Of a stretch of 38,320 nucleotides of DNA, positions 19,186 through 26,982 are shown in pieces. A model generated the notes under the pieces. That model saw nothing but the letters and a program-made list of their open reading frames with translations, made no database searches and was not told the origin of the DNA. Made by a program: the position numbers and the translations under genes. Origin of the DNA: an uncultured SAR86 cluster bacterium (GTDB taxonomy: Bacteria > Pseudomonadota > Gammaproteobacteria > Magnimaribacterales > AG-339-G14); contig CACNYO010000009.1 of the NCBI GenBank assembly GCA_902624765.1, forward strand, positions 1-38,320, given 5' to 3'. Every line of letters starts with the position of its first letter. Within the stretch, counting starts at the first letter, position 1.

Positions 19186-19237
19186 TTTAACTTTATTTAT
19201 TGATAATAGCTTGCTAAGGTTGCATTCCATTTCATAT

Positions 19238-19314
<77 letters not shown>

Positions 19315-19473
19315 TTTTCACTTTTTAAATAGATCCTTTATAAGAGCTTTATCAAGATTTCTCAGTATGTAATTAATTTTTCTAATTCTTAATGACCACA
19401 TCGTGGAAGGTTAGTAGAGGAGGGGAAGTAGTAATATCCTATTATCAATCCTTTTGTAAATATAAAAAAATAT

Positions 19474-19503
19474 TTGACAACTATATTTGGGCCCAGTTAT
19501 TAT
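19474..19503 (+). promoter_or_regulatory. Putative sigma70-type promoter upstream of the DGQHR gene
   Basis: TTGACA (19474-19479), 18 nt spacer, TATTAT (19498-19503), followed by an SD-like AGGAGA before ATG 19532. Confidence 0.45.
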
Positions 19504-19531
19504 AACTATATATAACTTACAGGAGAAAAAA

Positions 19532-20794
19532 ATGAGTAATAAAATTGAATTTAATTTGATAAAGGTTCTGAATATTTTCGGTATTGATTTCTACAATGGT
19601 GCAATTTCAGTAGCAGATCTTTTGGAGATTATGGATGTAGCAGAATTTAATCCCTGGGAATCACCTTTGAAGGGATATCAGAGAAAGCTAAATGATGCCA
19701 AGGTAAATGCAATAGCAGAAAGAACAATATTAAATTTAGGAAGTCCTGAAGCCTTGGTAGATGCAATCAACCTAAATATCAGGGAAAAAGATGCTGTTGC
19801 TTATATCAAGCCCATTGATAAGAAAAATGACGGTTACGGTGGGTTTCATACTCTTACTTACATTCCGACATTAGGTAAGGCTTTCTTGGTGGATGGCCAA
19901 CACAGGGCAAAAGGATTACAGGCAGCTGTTAGCAAACTAAGAGATGACAAAAAATTTAATGAGATGAATCAATTACTTAATACTTATATAAATATATGTC
20001 TCACTCTGACAGAAGATATTTATAAAGAGGCTTATACATTTTATTTAATTAATCAATACGCTAAAAATGTTTCTCCTGAAGGAGCAACTAGGTTAATGCT
20101 TGAAGGTTTTGAGAATAATTCAATTGAATTTAAAAACGAAGTTACTAGTGAAAATACTAAAACAACAATTGATGATATTCATAGCGCCAAAATTGCCGAT
20201 ATGTTGTCTGCGAATTCTATTGTTTGGGCAAATAGAATTAAAGATTACAACGAAAAGGGAGCAGGGAAGGTTAGCGTAAGAGCAATGGCCATGATGATAA
20301 AACCCGTTTTTCTGGCTGTAACGAAAGCTCTTAAAGACAGTGGCTCAAAACAAGACCCTATTGACCTTACTTATGAGCTAATTGAGATTTATTGGAAAGC
20401 TATATCTAAAGTTTTTCCCGATATGTTCAATGAAATTAAAGGTAAGAATTTTGGAATAACTAAATCTTCGCAAGCTGAGGTAATGATGAAGGTTCTTAGG
20501 TATATTTTCTTAGTTCACAACACAGAATGGAAACAAAGAGGTTATACATTTGGAGATATTAAAAAAGATGAAAGCTGGATTAAAGTATTAACCACTCTTC
20601 AAAAGTTTAAAGACGAAAATGGTTCTCTTCCTCCTAGGAAAGTTACCGGTCAAGAATGTTGGACTATAGGTACTAGCGGATCTATGGGCAGATACACTAG
20701 TGCAAGTGCAAAGATAAATATTGCCAAGATTTTAGCTGAACATATAGAGAATGAGCTGAAAATATCTAGAAATAATCCTGGATCTTTAATTTGA
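19532..20794 (+). CDS. DGQHR-domain (DndB-like) protein
   Basis: In-frame ATG at 19532 with SD ACAGGAG; KGYQRKLNDAKVNAIAERTI and FLVDGQHRAKGLQAAV (DGQHR codons 19892-19906), the signature of the DGQHR/DndB family. Confidence 0.8.
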   Translation: MSNKIEFNLIKVLNIFGIDFYNGAISVADLLEIMDVAEFNPWESPLKGYQRKLNDAKVNAIAERTILNLGSPEALVDAINLNIREKDAVAYIKPIDKKNDGYGGFHTLTYIPTLGKAFLVDGQHRAKGLQAAVSKLRDDKKFNEMNQLLNTYINICLTLTEDIYKEAYTFYLINQYAKNVSPEGATRLMLEGFENNSIEFKNEVTSENTKTTIDDIHSAKIADMLSANSIVWANRIKDYNEKGAGKVSVRAMAMMIKPVFLAVTKALKDSGSKQDPIDLTYELIEIYWKAISKVFPDMFNEIKGKNFGITKSSQAEVMMKVLRYIFLVHNTEWKQRGYTFGDIKKDESWIKVLTTLQKFKDENGSLPPRKVTGQECWTIGTSGSMGRYTSASAKINIAKILAEHIENELKISRNNPGSLI

Positions 20795-20858
20795 ATAGGG
20801 CTCTTAAGCAAAGAGCATAAATTATGAAAATAGAGCTTATTAATTAACTCTGATTCTT

Positions 20859-20909: not shown

Positions 20910-22556
20910 ATGCTTAGGAAAACTCTAATCACTTTTGGTCTTCTCGCCATATTAGGCATCACAGCCTGGGAATTTAAAATAAATATACTTATTTGGTCTA
21001 TACCGAAGCTGTCGGCTATTTTTATGCCAGTTCAAGATAATATTCCAACCACTTGGACAGAGGGACCTGAAATTCCTATACAGGATAATCGTCCTAATAT
21101 TATTTTAATTTTGGCTGATGATATGGGATACAACGACATCTCTGCCCATAACGGCGGGGCAGCAGACGGGTCTTTGATAACACCCCATATAGATTCGCTA
21201 GCAGAAAACGGCATCCTCTTTTCAAGAGGATATGCTGCCAATGCTACTTGTGCACCTTCAAGAGCATCCATCATGACAGGGAAATACCCTACAAAATTTG
21301 GATATGAATTTACTCCCGTACCGGCAACAGGAAGATTAATTATGCGATGGCTTGCTGCAGAAGATGACTCAGAACTCAGAGCCAGAGTTGATAGAGAAGT
21401 AGCGACTCGACTACCTCCTCTATGGGAGCAAGGAATGCCAACTGAGCAAGTAACAATTGCAGAGGTTCTTCGTGATGCAGGATACTACACAGCACACATA
21501 GGAAAATGGCATCTTGGCCAAGCTAATGGCATGGATGCACAAAGCCAAGGTTTTAAAGATTCTTTATCTTTGGTGGGGCCTTTGTATGCTCCAGAGGATG
21601 ATCCAGACATAGTAAATGCTAAGTTCGATACCGCAATCGATAGGATGATTTGGGGTATTGGACAGTATTCAGCAATGTTTAACGGAGGCGATTTTTTTGC
21701 TCCAGATAAATATGTCACCGATTACTACACCGATGAAGCTTTGAAGGTTATTGAAAAAAATAAAAACAGACCTTTCTTTTTATATTTAAGTCACTGGGCT
21801 GTTCATAATCCCTTGCAGGCATTGAGAAGTGATGTACAGAACATGAGTCACATGCAAGGACATAATTTACAGGTTTATTCAGGAATGATTGCCGCGCTTG
21901 ATCGAAGCGTAGGGAAAGTTATTGCAAAACTCAAAGAGCTCGAAATCTATGGCAAAACTTTAATTATTTTTACTAGCGATAACGGTGGAGCCGATTATAT
22001 TGAGTTAGAGGATATTAATAAGCCTTACAGAGGTTGGAAGATAAGCTTCTTTGAAGGCGGAATAAGAGTTCCTTATATTGTCAGCTGGCCTGATAAGATA
22101 AATCCTGGTCAAAAATCTAATAGTGCTGTTCATCACTTTGATATTTTTTCTACGATTGCATCTGCTGCGGGCATTGAATCTTCAGAATTAAATGATTTAG
22201 ATGGTGTTAATCTTCTACCTTATATCAATAAAGAAATATCCACTGAACCGCATAAAACGCTTTTTTGGCGCTCAGGAAATCATCAATCTGTATTACATGA
22301 AAATTGGAAATACATAGTCAGTAAACAAGAAAATTTTCACTGGCTTTTTAACACTTCTGTTGATCCAACCGAAAAGAACAATCTTATTGAATCTCATCCT
22401 GAAAAAGCACAACTTCTAAAAAGTTTACTGGCTGAATTTAATTCGGAGCAAGCTGATCCAGTTGTGCCATCAGCATTTGAAGTTCCAATCCTCATAGATA
22501 AATACGATGGACAAAAATATGAGGAAGGAGACGACTATATTTATTGGTCAAACTAA
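20910..22556 (+). CDS. Arylsulfatase-type sulfatase (Cys-type)
   Basis: 548 aa; NIILILADDMGYNDIS, ATCAPSRASIMTGKYPTKFGYE (C-x-P-S-R), HIGKWHLG, FTSDNGG; N-terminal membrane anchor or signal. Confidence 0.92.
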   Translation: MLRKTLITFGLLAILGITAWEFKINILIWSIPKLSAIFMPVQDNIPTTWTEGPEIPIQDNRPNIILILADDMGYNDISAHNGGAADGSLITPHIDSLAENGILFSRGYAANATCAPSRASIMTGKYPTKFGYEFTPVPATGRLIMRWLAAEDDSELRARVDREVATRLPPLWEQGMPTEQVTIAEVLRDAGYYTAHIGKWHLGQANGMDAQSQGFKDSLSLVGPLYAPEDDPDIVNAKFDTAIDRMIWGIGQYSAMFNGGDFFAPDKYVTDYYTDEALKVIEKNKNRPFFLYLSHWAVHNPLQALRSDVQNMSHMQGHNLQVYSGMIAALDRSVGKVIAKLKELEIYGKTLIIFTSDNGGADYIELEDINKPYRGWKISFFEGGIRVPYIVSWPDKINPGQKSNSAVHHFDIFSTIASAAGIESSELNDLDGVNLLPYINKEISTEPHKTLFWRSGNHQSVLHENWKYIVSKQENFHWLFNTSVDPTEKNNLIESHPEKAQLLKSLLAEFNSEQADPVVPSAFEVPILIDKYDGQKYEEGDDYIYWSN

Positions 22557-22563
22557 AAATTAA

Positions 22564-24558
22564 ATGAGTATTTTAAAAAAATCTTTTTTTTGGATTGCAG
22601 GAATTACTCTTATCCTAATTTTAATCATCTTTATTTCTTATCAGTACCAAGAGAGACAAACAAAAAAATCAGTTGAAAAAATAGATGATATTTTCTCAAA
22701 ACAAAAATCATCCATGAAGTATGAGACTGATGAGAGACGAGAGAAAAACCCAGATAAAAATGCCTATTTTGGGGATCTACACGTTCACACGGCTAATTCT
22801 TTTGATTCTTATACATTCGGCAATATTAATTCTCCAGATGATGCATATCGTTATGCTCGAGGAGCTGCTTTACCCCATCCATCCGGATATCAGATCCAGC
22901 TCAAAAGACCTTTAGATTTTTATGCGGTGACTGATCACGGGATATTTTTGGGAGTGATGAAATCTGCAAGTGACGAAAATTCTTTTTTGTCTAAATATGA
23001 TTGGGTGAAACCATTACATAATTTAAATGATTCAGCGGGTGCAGGCATATTTGAGGTCATCAGAAGATCTAACCTCTTTAGACCTTTCGCACAGAGGCTC
23101 GCAGAGGAGGGAAGACTGGCCAATGATCTTACCAATGAATTAAATAAGATTTCCAGCAGTGTTTGGCAGGATATTATTCGTGCTGCTGATAGAGCCTATG
23201 AACCAGGAGTTTTGACTACTTTTGCTGGTTACGAATACTCGGCAGGTAGCGGAGCAGACCTTACAACACTTCATAGAAACGTTATTTTCAAGGATACTAA
23301 AAATTTACCATTAATGCCCTTTAGCAGAGTAGATAGTCCAAATCCAGAAAAGTTATGGGATTGGATGGATTCTCTTAGAAATAATGGAGTTGAGAGCATG
23401 GCCATACCACATAATTCTAATCTCTCTGGAGGCTTAATGTTTATGCTAGATGATTTTAATGGCGCTCCAATAGATGAATCTTATAGCAGAAAGAGAATAA
23501 GTAATGAGCCTGTTGTTGAAATAACTCAGGTAAAAGCTACTTCAGAGACGAACTCCTTCTTGTCAAAAAATGATGAGTGGGCTGATTTTGAAATTGAAAA
23601 TACAGCAGATAATGATGAAGGGAGTTATACAAGAAGTGCCTTGTTAAGAGGCATGGCTCTGAAAAACAAAAGTGGCGTCAATCCATATAAATTTGGCTTT
23701 ATTGGGTCAACTGATACTCATGTATCTGCATCATCGTTCGAAGAAGATAGATACTTTTCAAAAATAGGCATTCTCGATGGAACTCCTGAACTCAGGGGAT
23801 CTATTCCTTTCAATAAGACTTATGGATCCGTATTGAAAGTCCTAAGGCCAAATTTAATTGCAGAGGTTGATGGAAAAGATTATTTCGCAGGCAGCAATAG
23901 GCTCATTAGCTGGAGCGCTTCCGGCCTTGCAGGTGTATGGGCTGAAGAGAATACAAGAGAGTCAATTTTTAATGCATTTAAAAGAAAGGAAACTTTTGCA
24001 ACTAGCGGACCAAGAATAAAAATTAGATTTTTTGCTGGATATGACATTGAGAGTGCATTCAGCAAAGAAAATACCATCGCCTACCTTTATAAAACAGCAT
24101 CGACAATGGGAGGAAGCCTCAAAACTAAAAAGAACAAATCTCCTACTTTTCTTGTGTGGGCGATGGCTGATGCCCAAGGTACAAATTTACAGAGAGTACA
24201 AATTATCAAGGGTTGGCTCGATAATGGAGAATCTAAAGAGAAAGTCTTTGATGCGACCTGTAGCGATGGATTAGAAGTAGACAAATCATCTCAAAGGTGT
24301 CCTGACAATGGTGCAAAAGTTAATTTGAATGATTGCTCTATATCCAAAAATAAGGGCTCTAAGGAACTAAAAACTTTATGGAAAGATCCAGAATTTCTTG
24401 AAGATCAAGAAGCCTTTTATTACGTCAGAGTTTTAGAAAATCCAGTATGCAGATGGTCTACTTGGGACGCTATTAGAAGTAATCAACTTCCTAGATCGGA
24501 TGTAAAATCAACCATTCAAGAAAGAGCTTGGTCTTCACCAATCTGGATAAGGAACTAA
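22564..24558 (+). CDS. DUF3604 domain protein (PHP-like), N-terminally anchored
   Basis: 664 aa; NAYFGDLHVHTANSFDSYTFGN...PDDAYRYARG, LDFYAVTDHG, AIPHNSNLSGG, GFIGSTDTHV. Confidence 0.88.
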   Translation: MSILKKSFFWIAGITLILILIIFISYQYQERQTKKSVEKIDDIFSKQKSSMKYETDERREKNPDKNAYFGDLHVHTANSFDSYTFGNINSPDDAYRYARGAALPHPSGYQIQLKRPLDFYAVTDHGIFLGVMKSASDENSFLSKYDWVKPLHNLNDSAGAGIFEVIRRSNLFRPFAQRLAEEGRLANDLTNELNKISSSVWQDIIRAADRAYEPGVLTTFAGYEYSAGSGADLTTLHRNVIFKDTKNLPLMPFSRVDSPNPEKLWDWMDSLRNNGVESMAIPHNSNLSGGLMFMLDDFNGAPIDESYSRKRISNEPVVEITQVKATSETNSFLSKNDEWADFEIENTADNDEGSYTRSALLRGMALKNKSGVNPYKFGFIGSTDTHVSASSFEEDRYFSKIGILDGTPELRGSIPFNKTYGSVLKVLRPNLIAEVDGKDYFAGSNRLISWSASGLAGVWAEENTRESIFNAFKRKETFATSGPRIKIRFFAGYDIESAFSKENTIAYLYKTASTMGGSLKTKKNKSPTFLVWAMADAQGTNLQRVQIIKGWLDNGESKEKVFDATCSDGLEVDKSSQRCPDNGAKVNLNDCSISKNKGSKELKTLWKDPEFLEDQEAFYYVRVLENPVCRWSTWDAIRSNQLPRSDVKSTIQERAWSSPIWIRN

Positions 24559-24563
24559 AAATT

Positions 24564-25793
24564 TTAGGCAGATTGAAATTTAGTGATTCTCAAAGGCAAA
24601 GCAATTGCTAAATAAAGAAGACAAATAAGAGCATGTATTCCTGATACTTGTACCGATAGAAGACTTAATTCATTCACGCCGAAGAAAATAAGAATAATAA
24701 ATGATATTGATCTGATTGATTCCATCCACAAAGCAGATTGCTTTCCCTCTAGAAACATCAGAGTAAAAGTAATAAAAAGTACCGCGTTACTAATAAGTAT
24801 CAAAGATTGAAAATAAGTCTGTTGATCTAAGCCAGAAACGATGAAATTTGGAATAATTATTAGGCTAAAAATCTGAAAAAATGCATAAATTTTCTGTAGA
24901 ACATCTATTTTTGGATCGTATTTAACAAAAGATGATAAGTCATTTCTTTGAACTGGAAATCTTTTAGAAACATCATCTGGCCTCCATCTGGCATCTGAAA
25001 ACCAAACCTTAAATTTATCTCTCCAACTTTTGGTTGCAAAAGAATCTCTTAACATCATCCAATACACATCCACATTAGCCTTGATTGGGTTCCAGCTATT
25101 TAAAGGTTTAACAGTTCCATAAATTGGCTTCACTTCATCTTTTTCCTCGATGAAAGTACCAAATATAATATCCCAAAATATAAATACTCCTCCATAATTA
25201 GCATCGATATACTCCTCATTCTGAGCATGATGCACTCTATGATTTGAAGGAGTTACTAATATGTACTCGAATATACCAATGGTTTTGACGTGCTCAGTAT
25301 GAACCCAAAATTGATAGATAAGATTCAGAGATCCTACTGTGATAAAAACCTCAGGAGGAATACCAAGAATAAAAAGAGGTATATAAAAGATCCAACTCCA
25401 CAGGAAACCTGAACTGGTTTGTCTCAGGGCTGTAGATAAATTGAATTCTTCCCCATGATGATGAACTACATGACTTGCCCAAAAAACTTTTACCTCATGA
25501 TGCATTCTATGGAACCAGTAATAGCAAAGGTCATAAAGAATAAAGGCTGTAACCCATACTATCCATGAAGAGCTAGATAATAAGGACAAGCTAAAATAGT
25601 CTGCAATGAAAGCAAACACAGCTCCTTGAAATCCCAGTTTTAAAATTGGAATGTATTGACTTATTGAACCTAGCGATAGACTAGTTAAAGTATCCGAGAC
25701 TCGGTAGTTATTTTTTTTTACAAGAAATCCATAACCTAATTCAAGAAGTATCAGGAGAAGGAAGAAAGGGACAGCATAAGCGACATAATCCAT
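24564..25793 (-). CDS. Sterol desaturase / fatty acid hydroxylase superfamily membrane protein
   Basis: 409 aa; histidine clusters HRMHHE, HVVHHHGEEFNLSTALRQT, HRVHHAQNEEYIDANYGG. Confidence 0.88.
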   Translation of the reverse strand: MDYVAYAVPFFLLLILLELGYGFLVKKNNYRVSDTLTSLSLGSISQYIPILKLGFQGAVFAFIADYFSLSLLSSSSWIVWVTAFILYDLCYYWFHRMHHEVKVFWASHVVHHHGEEFNLSTALRQTSSGFLWSWIFYIPLFILGIPPEVFITVGSLNLIYQFWVHTEHVKTIGIFEYILVTPSNHRVHHAQNEEYIDANYGGVFIFWDIIFGTFIEEKDEVKPIYGTVKPLNSWNPIKANVDVYWMMLRDSFATKSWRDKFKVWFSDARWRPDDVSKRFPVQRNDLSSFVKYDPKIDVLQKIYAFFQIFSLIIIPNFIVSGLDQQTYFQSLILISNAVLFITFTLMFLEGKQSALWMESIRSISFIILIFFGVNELSLLSVQVSGIHALICLLYLAIALPLRITKFQSA

Positions 25794-25885
25794 ATGTGGA
25801 TTATATTCTCTATCAAAAATGATCCAAGCTGATTTGTATCTTAAATATATATTTATTTAAATTCTATAAGTAAAATAAAGTTGAT

Positions 25886-26083
25886 ATGGACGAAAAACTT
25901 CTAAAACTAGAGCAGTGGTTTATTGTTCTCTTTGCATTTGTTTTTTTCGGCAGCATTTTTAATGCAGGCGTTATTTACCTTTTTGAGCCAAAAAATGAAT
26001 TTTTCTTCACTATCATGAGTTATTTGGTCGGCTTTCTTTTTGGCTTAGTAGCTAAGAACAAAAAATGGGGTTGGATAGTATGA
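25886..26083 (+). CDS. Small two-TM hypothetical membrane protein
   Basis: 65 aa MDEKLLKLEQWFIVLFAFVFFGSIFNAGVIYLFEPKNEFFFTIMSYLVGFLFGLVAKNKKWGWIV; its 3' end overlaps the start region of the desaturase. Confidence 0.55.
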   Translation: MDEKLLKLEQWFIVLFAFVFFGSIFNAGVIYLFEPKNEFFFTIMSYLVGFLFGLVAKNKKWGWIV

Positions 26084-26982
26084 TTAATAGCCAGACATAT
26101 AATTTTCACTCCTCGGATTTATCACATGAAAGAGAAAAAGAAATAGCTAGATCATTTATGGGAAGAATAGAGTGGGAAATGATTGTTATTGCTTTTACAC
26201 AATTTTTCGTATGGTGCCTTACCTGGTATTTAGTTGTTTCGTCAATCATTCCACTGTGGCTGGGATTTTTCATCTCTCTTATTTCTACTTCGTTTGCATA
26301 TTTACCATCTCATGCAGGCCAACACGGACACCTCTCAGGGAAATATAAAAATCTTGAATGGGTTAATTTTGTTGTAGGTCAAATTTCGCTGATTCCTCTT
26401 GCAAGATCTCATGAACTTCTAAAAGTTCTTCATATGAAACATCACGCACATACAAATGATCCTGAAAAGGATCCAGATTATTTTCATACCCACGTTGACT
26501 CATGGTTTGAAGCAGCTATGAGAATACATAATCAAGGATCAGACGAAAGGATTGAAAAGATGGTTAATGATTATTCAGATAAAGATCCTGAATTTAAAAA
26601 AAGCATAGATAGAGGATCTCAAGTTCAATTTTTTATTGTCTTAATGCAGATGGTTACGGCTTTCTTTTTTCCTTTGGAAACCCTTTTTTTATGGTGGCTT
26701 CCTTTAAAAATCACTACCTCTTATTTAGGTATAGTTTTCTCAAGAGAGCCTCATAGAGGACTAGGAATTGGAAGGCATAGTGATACAAGATTCTGGAGAA
26801 ACGGCATACCTAGGTTTTTAAATCACTCAATGCAAATTCACATAATGCATCATATGTACCCAAAAATTTGTCATCATGATGAACCCAAAGCAATAGAGGC
26901 CTTACGACCTTTTATGATTGCAAAAAATATGCCTGGTGCAGAAAATATCCCAGAAAAAATTTCGTTTAACTCATTAACTTAA
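26080..26982 (+). CDS. Membrane fatty acid desaturase; ORF track starts at 26065
   Basis: Three His boxes: HAGQHGH, HMKHHAHTNDPEKDPDYF, HIMHHMYPKICHHDEP. ATG at 26080 is likely; 26065 is also possible. Confidence 0.85.
   Translation: MINSQTYNFHSSDLSHEREKEIARSFMGRIEWEMIVIAFTQFFVWCLTWYLVVSSIIPLWLGFFISLISTSFAYLPSHAGQHGHLSGKYKNLEWVNFVVGQISLIPLARSHELLKVLHMKHHAHTNDPEKDPDYFHTHVDSWFEAAMRIHNQGSDERIEKMVNDYSDKDPEFKKSIDRGSQVQFFIVLMQMVTAFFFPLETLFLWWLPLKITTSYLGIVFSREPHRGLGIGRHSDTRFWRNGIPRFLNHSMQIHIMHHMYPKICHHDEPKAIEALRPFMIAKNMPGAENIPEKISFNSLT

What the first reader, a model, noticed from the sequence alone, without database searches (positions are those of the whole stretch)
19532..20794. Orphan DGQHR-domain (DndB-like) gene directly downstream of tRNA-Ile
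The protein carries the GYQRKLNDAKVNAIAERTI segment and the FLVDGQHR motif of the DGQHR/DndB family. Characterised relatives act in DNA modification loci (phosphorothioation dnd; dpd deazaguanine loci use related ParB/DGQHR proteins). Here it stands alone: no dndC/D/E, dpd, methyltransferase, restriction or helicase gene was recognised in the window. It has its own promoter-like sequence and sits next to a tRNA, a classical island site. It could be a solo defence or regulatory factor, a remnant of a lost system, or a trans partner of a system elsewhere in the genome.
Basis: partly seen in the sequence, partly recalled or inferred. Interest (0 to 1): 0.6.

Follow-up and report, generated by a model that had tools for sequence, protein, structure and literature searches.

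The report
Lone defence-type gene beside tRNA-Ile
A small-genome bacterium carries a single gene of a family used in anti-phage DNA-modification systems, dropped exactly behind a tRNA gene that its relatives use as a landing site for other small pieces of DNA, one of which is a phage-restriction enzyme gene; the gene is a distant, uncharacterised relative of known ones and its function is inferred, not shown.

Summary
Confirmed: the 420-aa ORF at 19532-20794 is a genuine, divergent DGQHR-domain protein (TIGR03187 72.4 bits, cut-off 58.9; PF14072 49.2, cut-off 29.1). The QR, DGQHR and FxxxN motifs are intact, and an AlphaFold model (pLDDT 73) matches ParB/Srx-fold proteins best. It is neither DndB nor DpdB (far below the equivalog cut-offs), and no close homologue was found in any collection searched. 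The gene is therefore the sole cargo of a ~1.53-kb insertion, absent from all eight. The site is a hotspot: other genomes of the family carry different 1-3-gene inserts there. One is a GmrSD type IV restriction gene, a fold relative; three inserts keep a 44-54-bp repeat of the tRNA 3' end. No insert examined carries an integrase. No dndC was found in the 72%-complete genome, and nothing else in the window is defence-like. Best reading: an acquired single-gene ParB/Srx NTPase, probably anti-phage, carried as tRNA-targeted, helper-dependent cargo. A partner elsewhere or a remnant are live rivals. Function is inferred only.

The parts
19238..19314 (+). tRNA-Ile (GAT), the landing site; its last base is the left edge of the insertion
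   Evidence: ARAGORN, Rfam tRNA 72.1 bits; 19200-19314 is 99-100% identical in all 8 other genomes of the genus and the match stops at the last tRNA base
19315..20842 (.). Inserted segment, ~1.53 kb, with the DGQHR gene as its only substantial ORF; outer limit of the right edge 20851
   Evidence: Left: homology to congeners ends at 19314. Right: homology resumes at 20852, corresponding to base +10 after the tRNA in empty sites; AATT at ~20841 may match base +1. No repeat of the tRNA 3' end detectable at the right edge
19474..19503 (+). Promoter-like TTGACA-18-TATTAT inside the insert
   Evidence: 11 of 12 consensus positions; not enriched over shuffles, so weak evidence
19521..19525 (+). Shine-Dalgarno-like AGGAG before the ATG
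   Evidence: read directly
19532..20794 (+). DGQHR-domain protein, 420 aa, N-terminal ParB/Srx-like domain (about 1-180) plus helical C-terminal half
   Evidence: TIGR03187 72.4 bits, PF14072 49.2 bits; AF2 model pLDDT 72.8; fold matches to ParB/Noc/GmrSD_N/DndB
19679..19684 (+). Codons of the conserved QR pair (Q50 R51)
   Evidence: invariant in a 22-sequence alignment
19892..19906 (+). Codons of D121-G-Q-H-R125, predicted NTP site
   Evidence: invariant; the equivalent DGQQR arginine of DndI is needed for ATP hydrolysis and phage resistance (PMC11662687)
20039..20053 (+). Codons of F170xxxN174, third motif of the DGQHR domain
   Evidence: F170 and N174 invariant; motif defined in PMC4619093
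20910..22556 (+). Sulfatase; the gene that directly follows the tRNA (start at +66 to +82) in most genomes with the empty site
   Evidence: PF00884; synteny

Best explanation
The gene is the only cargo of a ~1.53-kb insertion at the 3' end of tRNA-Ile, a hotspot where this bacterial family repeatedly gains small gene inserts without an integrase of their own. The protein is a divergent, stand-alone ParB/Srx-fold NTPase of the DGQHR family. Most likely it acts as a single-gene anti-phage or anti-mobile-element factor. It would bind nucleotide through D121GQHR125, sense invading DNA or phage replication, and nick DNA, deplete nucleotides or control a target gene. Shown: family membership, motifs, predicted fold, insertion, empty site in relatives, hotspot, a GmrSD restriction gene at the same site in another genus. 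Inferred: NTPase activity, defence role, site-specific integration supplied in trans.
For: Family: TIGR03187 and PF14072 over cut-off; QR, DGQHR, FxxxN invariant. Fold: AF2 pLDDT 72.8; the top PDB matches include Noc, ParB-N and PadC, and SspE lower down, none below E=0.001; the viral-model top list is dominated by DndB, GmrSD_N and ParB names, 21 matches at E<=0.001. Insertion: eight congeners have tRNA-Ile followed within about 70 bp by sulfatase (5) or by redoxin (3), none with the gene. Hotspot: of 36 loci of the family, other inserts behind the same tRNA are a 607-aa GmrSD (PF03235 101 bits + PF07510 44 bits), a 253-aa UDG-like ORF, three small ORFs, a purple-acid-phosphatase-like gene and a 91-aa ORF. 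Three inserts keep 44-54-bp copies of the tRNA 3' end; in G033 the empty-site sequence resumes directly after the copy. Integrases: nearly all 40 genomes have only one or two ~300-aa Xer-like recombinases. Literature: DndI, an N-terminal DUF262 relative, needs the DGQQR arginine for ATPase and phage resistance (PMC11662687); DndB proposed as ParB-superfamily effector or regulator (PMC10853773).
Against: No experiment. No HNH or other nuclease domain was detected in this protein, unlike GmrSD, DndI and SspE. The window insert has no tRNA 3' repeat. Other cargo at the hotspot is metabolic or unknown, so position alone does not prove defence. The closest viral relatives occur with a partner gene, which is missing here. 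Codon usage is like the host's (rank 18 of 24), so acquisition is not recent or the donor had similar composition. The genome is 72% complete.
Confidence: 0.5

Rival explanations
1. Trans partner: the protein is the ATPase or regulator of a multi-gene DNA-modification or defence system encoded elsewhere in the genome or on a part missing from the assembly.
For: Characterised family members work in multi-gene loci (DndB, DpdB; PMC4507180, PMC10853773, PMC12839542). About 28% of the genome is missing. Its nearest viral relatives form a conserved two-gene cassette with a ~310-aa unknown protein.
Against: No dndC in the assembled genome; no defence gene in the rest of the window; the insert itself carries no second gene; scores far below the DGQHR_dnd_1 and DpdB equivalog cut-offs.
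Confidence: 0.2
2. Remnant: the gene is what is left of a larger island or prophage that once carried an integrase and partner genes.
For: No integrase and no right-hand tRNA repeat; some relatives sit in P2-like prophages.
Against: The reading frame and all three motifs are intact, with an SD-like site and a promoter-like sequence; the insert fits the 0.5-2-kb size of other inserts at this site, three of which still have their repeats and no integrase.
Confidence: 0.15
3. Selfish or counter-defence cargo: the gene serves the mobile element or a helper phage (regulation, partition-like DNA binding, anti-restriction) and not the host.
For: ParB/Srx fold; family members are common in viral contigs; ParB/Srx proteins mediate conflict among plasmids (Maindola 2014, cited in PMC10853773).
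Against: No replication, partition or packaging gene accompanies it; the insert is a single gene; the GmrSD at the same site in a sister genus belongs to a family that acts on phage DNA.
Confidence: 0.15

Closest known systems
DndB (TIGR03233 / PF14072), regulator of dnd phosphorothioation
   Same: DGQHR domain, QR and FxxxN motifs; PF14072 over the gathering score
   Different: No TIGR03233 hit among the ncbifam matches listed at E<=1, low identity (about 16-19%) to a true DndB; no dndC/D/E beside it; no dndC in the assembly
DpdB (NF041060 / PDLC02811), ATPase of deazaguanine DNA modification
   Same: Best PADLOC match (29 bits) and the only plasmid tblastn match, 24% identity to a Caulobacter DpdB, E=3e-3
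   Different: 32 bits against an equivalog cut-off of 300; no dpd gene in the window
GmrSD / DndI / SspE (DUF262 + HNH) restriction factors
   Same: Same superfamily fold and related DGQHR/DGQQR site; a GmrSD gene occupies the same tRNA-Ile site in genome G035
   Different: No HNH (PF07510) domain in the window protein; DGQHR, not DGQQR
DGQHR + ~310-aa two-gene cassette of viral contigs, at least one P2-like (no name found)
   Same: Among the nearest relatives by BLAST, E down to 2e-6 over the N-terminal domain
   Different: 326 aa, paired with a second gene; window protein is longer and alone
tRNA-targeted islands and tycheposons of marine bacteria
   Same: Cargo placed at a tRNA 3' end in a streamlined genome; repeats of the tRNA end at some inserts
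   Different: Described as 4-200 kb with a tyrosine recombinase (PMC10872708); here 0.5-2 kb, no recombinase

Membership tests
DGQHR domain family (TIGR03187 / PF14072) | Profile score over curated cut-off | tested here: met
   TIGR03187 72.4 > 58.85 bits; PF14072 49.2 > 29.1 bits
DGQHR domain family (TIGR03187 / PF14072) | QR pair, DGQHR pentapeptide, FxxxN motif | tested here: met
   Q50 R51, D121-R125, F170/N174 invariant in 22 sequences; motifs as listed in PMC4619093
ParB/Srx superfamily | ParB/sulfiredoxin-like fold | tested here: met
   Predicted only: AF2 model pLDDT 73; Foldseek top hits Noc, ParB-N, PadC, though none at E<=0.001 in PDB; 21 viral models at E<=0.001, mostly ParB, GmrSD_N or DndB where named. 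TM-scores are low
DndB | Equivalog score TIGR03233 (cut-off 328) | tested here: not met
   TIGR03233 not among the matches at E<=1; a true DndB scores 455
DndB | Linked dndC/dndD/dndE | tested here: not met
   None in the window; no dndC in the 72%-complete genome
DpdB | Equivalog score NF041060 (cut-off 300) | tested here: not met
   32 bits
DpdB | dpdA and dpdC in the same genome | not tested
   Window has none; genome-wide search not run
GmrSD type IV restriction | DUF262 plus HNH (PF03235 + PF07510) | tested here: not met
   Neither hit at E<=0.1 for the window protein
tRNA-targeted genomic island | Insertion at tRNA 3' end with empty site in relatives | tested here: met
tRNA-targeted genomic island | Direct repeat of tRNA 3' end at the far edge | tested here: not met
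   Absent at the window insert; present at inserts in G022, G023, G033
tRNA-targeted genomic island | Own integrase | tested here: not met
   None in the insert; one Xer-like recombinase in the assembly
DGQHR / DndI-type NTPase | NTPase or nickase activity | not testable with these tools
   Needs purified protein; only the motif is shown here

The most novel reading that the evidence does not exclude
A class of integrase-free, 0.5-2-kb cargo inserts targets the 3' end of tRNA-Ile in this lineage, moved by a helper's recombinase, and shuffles stand-alone defence genes (a new solo DGQHR effector here, GmrSD in a sister genus) among streamlined genomes.
Probability: 0.25. Interest if true: 0.75.

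Novelty: new variant of a known kind. Interest (0 to 1): 0.48.

Why it matters
If the gene works alone, it would be a one-gene ParB/Srx defence factor without the nuclease domain or modification enzymes that accompany its known relatives, and would help settle what DGQHR proteins do (regulator, ATPase, nickase or nucleotide-depleting effector). The landing site gives a concrete way to find further small defence genes in streamlined genomes: read what lies behind tRNA-Ile.

Tried and rejected
The single-sequence AlphaFold model was useless (pLDDT 36) and was replaced by one from a 22-row alignment. Sequence search of PDB gave nothing. Alien base composition or codon usage: not seen. Rfam: only the tRNA over threshold; two sub-threshold antisense/plastid hits overlap it and were rejected. 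Dnd genes in genome G024 lie on a short contig with a T9SS-tail protein, so probably a contaminant, and were not used as evidence for dnd in the family. The organism was not identified; SAR86 is only a guess from genome size, relatives and gene content.

Full report
Observation. The protein passes the curated cut-offs of both DGQHR profiles. All three motifs that define the domain (QR, DGQHR, FxxxN; PMC4619093) are present and invariant in a 22-member alignment.

What the protein is. It is a divergent member. It scores 35 bits against DGQHR_dnd_1 (cut-off 450) and 32 against DpdB (cut-off 300), with no TIGR03233 match listed, so it is not filed as DndB or DpdB. Searches of 203 genomes of the order, 369 of the class, phages, plasmids, IMG/VR and GTDB contigs found no close relative. 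The best are about 28-34% identical over ~100 residues in viral contigs, E down to 2e-6 in a small local database. An AlphaFold model from the 22-row alignment reaches pLDDT 72.8. Foldseek puts Noc, ParB-N and PadC near the top in PDB (weak E-values, 0.009 to 0.5), and mainly DndB/GmrSD_N/ParB models on top among viral proteins. No nuclease domain was detected; the C-terminal half is helical.

Where it sits. DNA 19200-19314 is 99-100% identical in the eight other genomes of the genus, and the match ends at the last base of tRNA-Ile. In five of them the sulfatase found downstream in the window starts 68-69 bp after the tRNA; in three the redoxin gene follows directly. Window sequence rejoins the empty site at 20852, base +10 after the tRNA, perhaps already at ~20842. 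So ~1.53 kb was inserted, holding one gene. No other genus member has the gene. The insert lacks a detectable copy of the tRNA 3' end (score 6-7, no better than shuffles).

A hotspot. Across 36 loci of the family, the same tRNA is followed by different small inserts: a 607-aa GmrSD (GmrSD_N 101 bits, GmrSD_C 44 bits; PADLOC Orf5, HEC-06 and mREase_IV matches) in G035; a 253-aa ORF with a sub-threshold UDG match in G037; three small ORFs in G033; a purple-acid-phosphatase-like gene in four genomes; a 91-aa ORF in G023. G033, G022 and G023 keep 54-, 45- and 44-bp copies of the tRNA 3' end at the far edge; in G033 the empty-site sequence resumes at base +1 after the copy, the pattern of site-specific integration. 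None of these inserts encodes a recognised integrase, and nearly all 40 genomes of the family have only one or two ~300-aa tyrosine recombinases, as expected for XerC/XerD; three have an additional larger one. Integration by an enzyme supplied in trans is therefore inferred, not shown.

Mechanism. Established knowledge: in DndI (DUF262-HNH) the DGQQR arginine is needed for ATP hydrolysis and phage resistance (PMC11662687); DndB is an ATP-modulated regulator, or possibly an effector (PMC4507180, PMC10853773); DpdB is a ParB-like ATPase (PMC12839542). By analogy D121-R125 should be an NTP site. With no partner in the insert, no other defence gene in the window, no dndC in the assembly, and a GmrSD at the same site in a sister genus, a stand-alone anti-invader role is the best guess, at about even odds.

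Limits. Hotspot occupancy includes non-defence genes, so position supports mobility more strongly than function.

Noticed in passing
L117:8701-10610; L138:2708-4617; L121, L155, L109, L128, L136, L142, L152, L154: In viral contigs, a 326-328-aa DGQHR gene is followed with ~4-nt overlap by a conserved ~310-320-aa protein with no usable Pfam or PADLOC match; in L138 it lies beside a P2-type replication gene A. A candidate uncharacterised two-gene phage-borne system.
   Followed up: partly
L076 (G035:C11), just after tRNA-Ile: A single-chain GmrSD type IV restriction gene inserted at the same tRNA-Ile site in another genus of the family.
   Followed up: yes
L077 (G033:C2), L056 (G022:C3), L083 (G023:C9): Small inserts bounded by the tRNA-Ile and a 54-, 45- or 44-bp copy of its 3' end, without integrase.
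   Followed up: partly
L085-L090: Proteins of about 810-900 aa with an internal DGQHR domain and a long unassigned N-terminal part in six other genomes of the order (one truncated by its contig); context not studied.
   Followed up: no
L084 (G024:C28): dndA-like, dndB, dndC and start of dndD on a 10.5-kb contig with a T9SS sorting-tail protein: probably a contaminant from Bacteroidota in that assembly.
   Followed up: partly
window 20910-26982: The block sulfatase, DUF3604, fatty-acid hydroxylase, desaturase behind the insert is itself variable: whole or in part missing in several congeners, so this is a layered variable region.
   Followed up: partly
L133:4813-7345: A DGQHR gene next to a D12-class adenine DNA methyltransferase and a 169-aa unknown ORF in a viral contig.
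   Followed up: no
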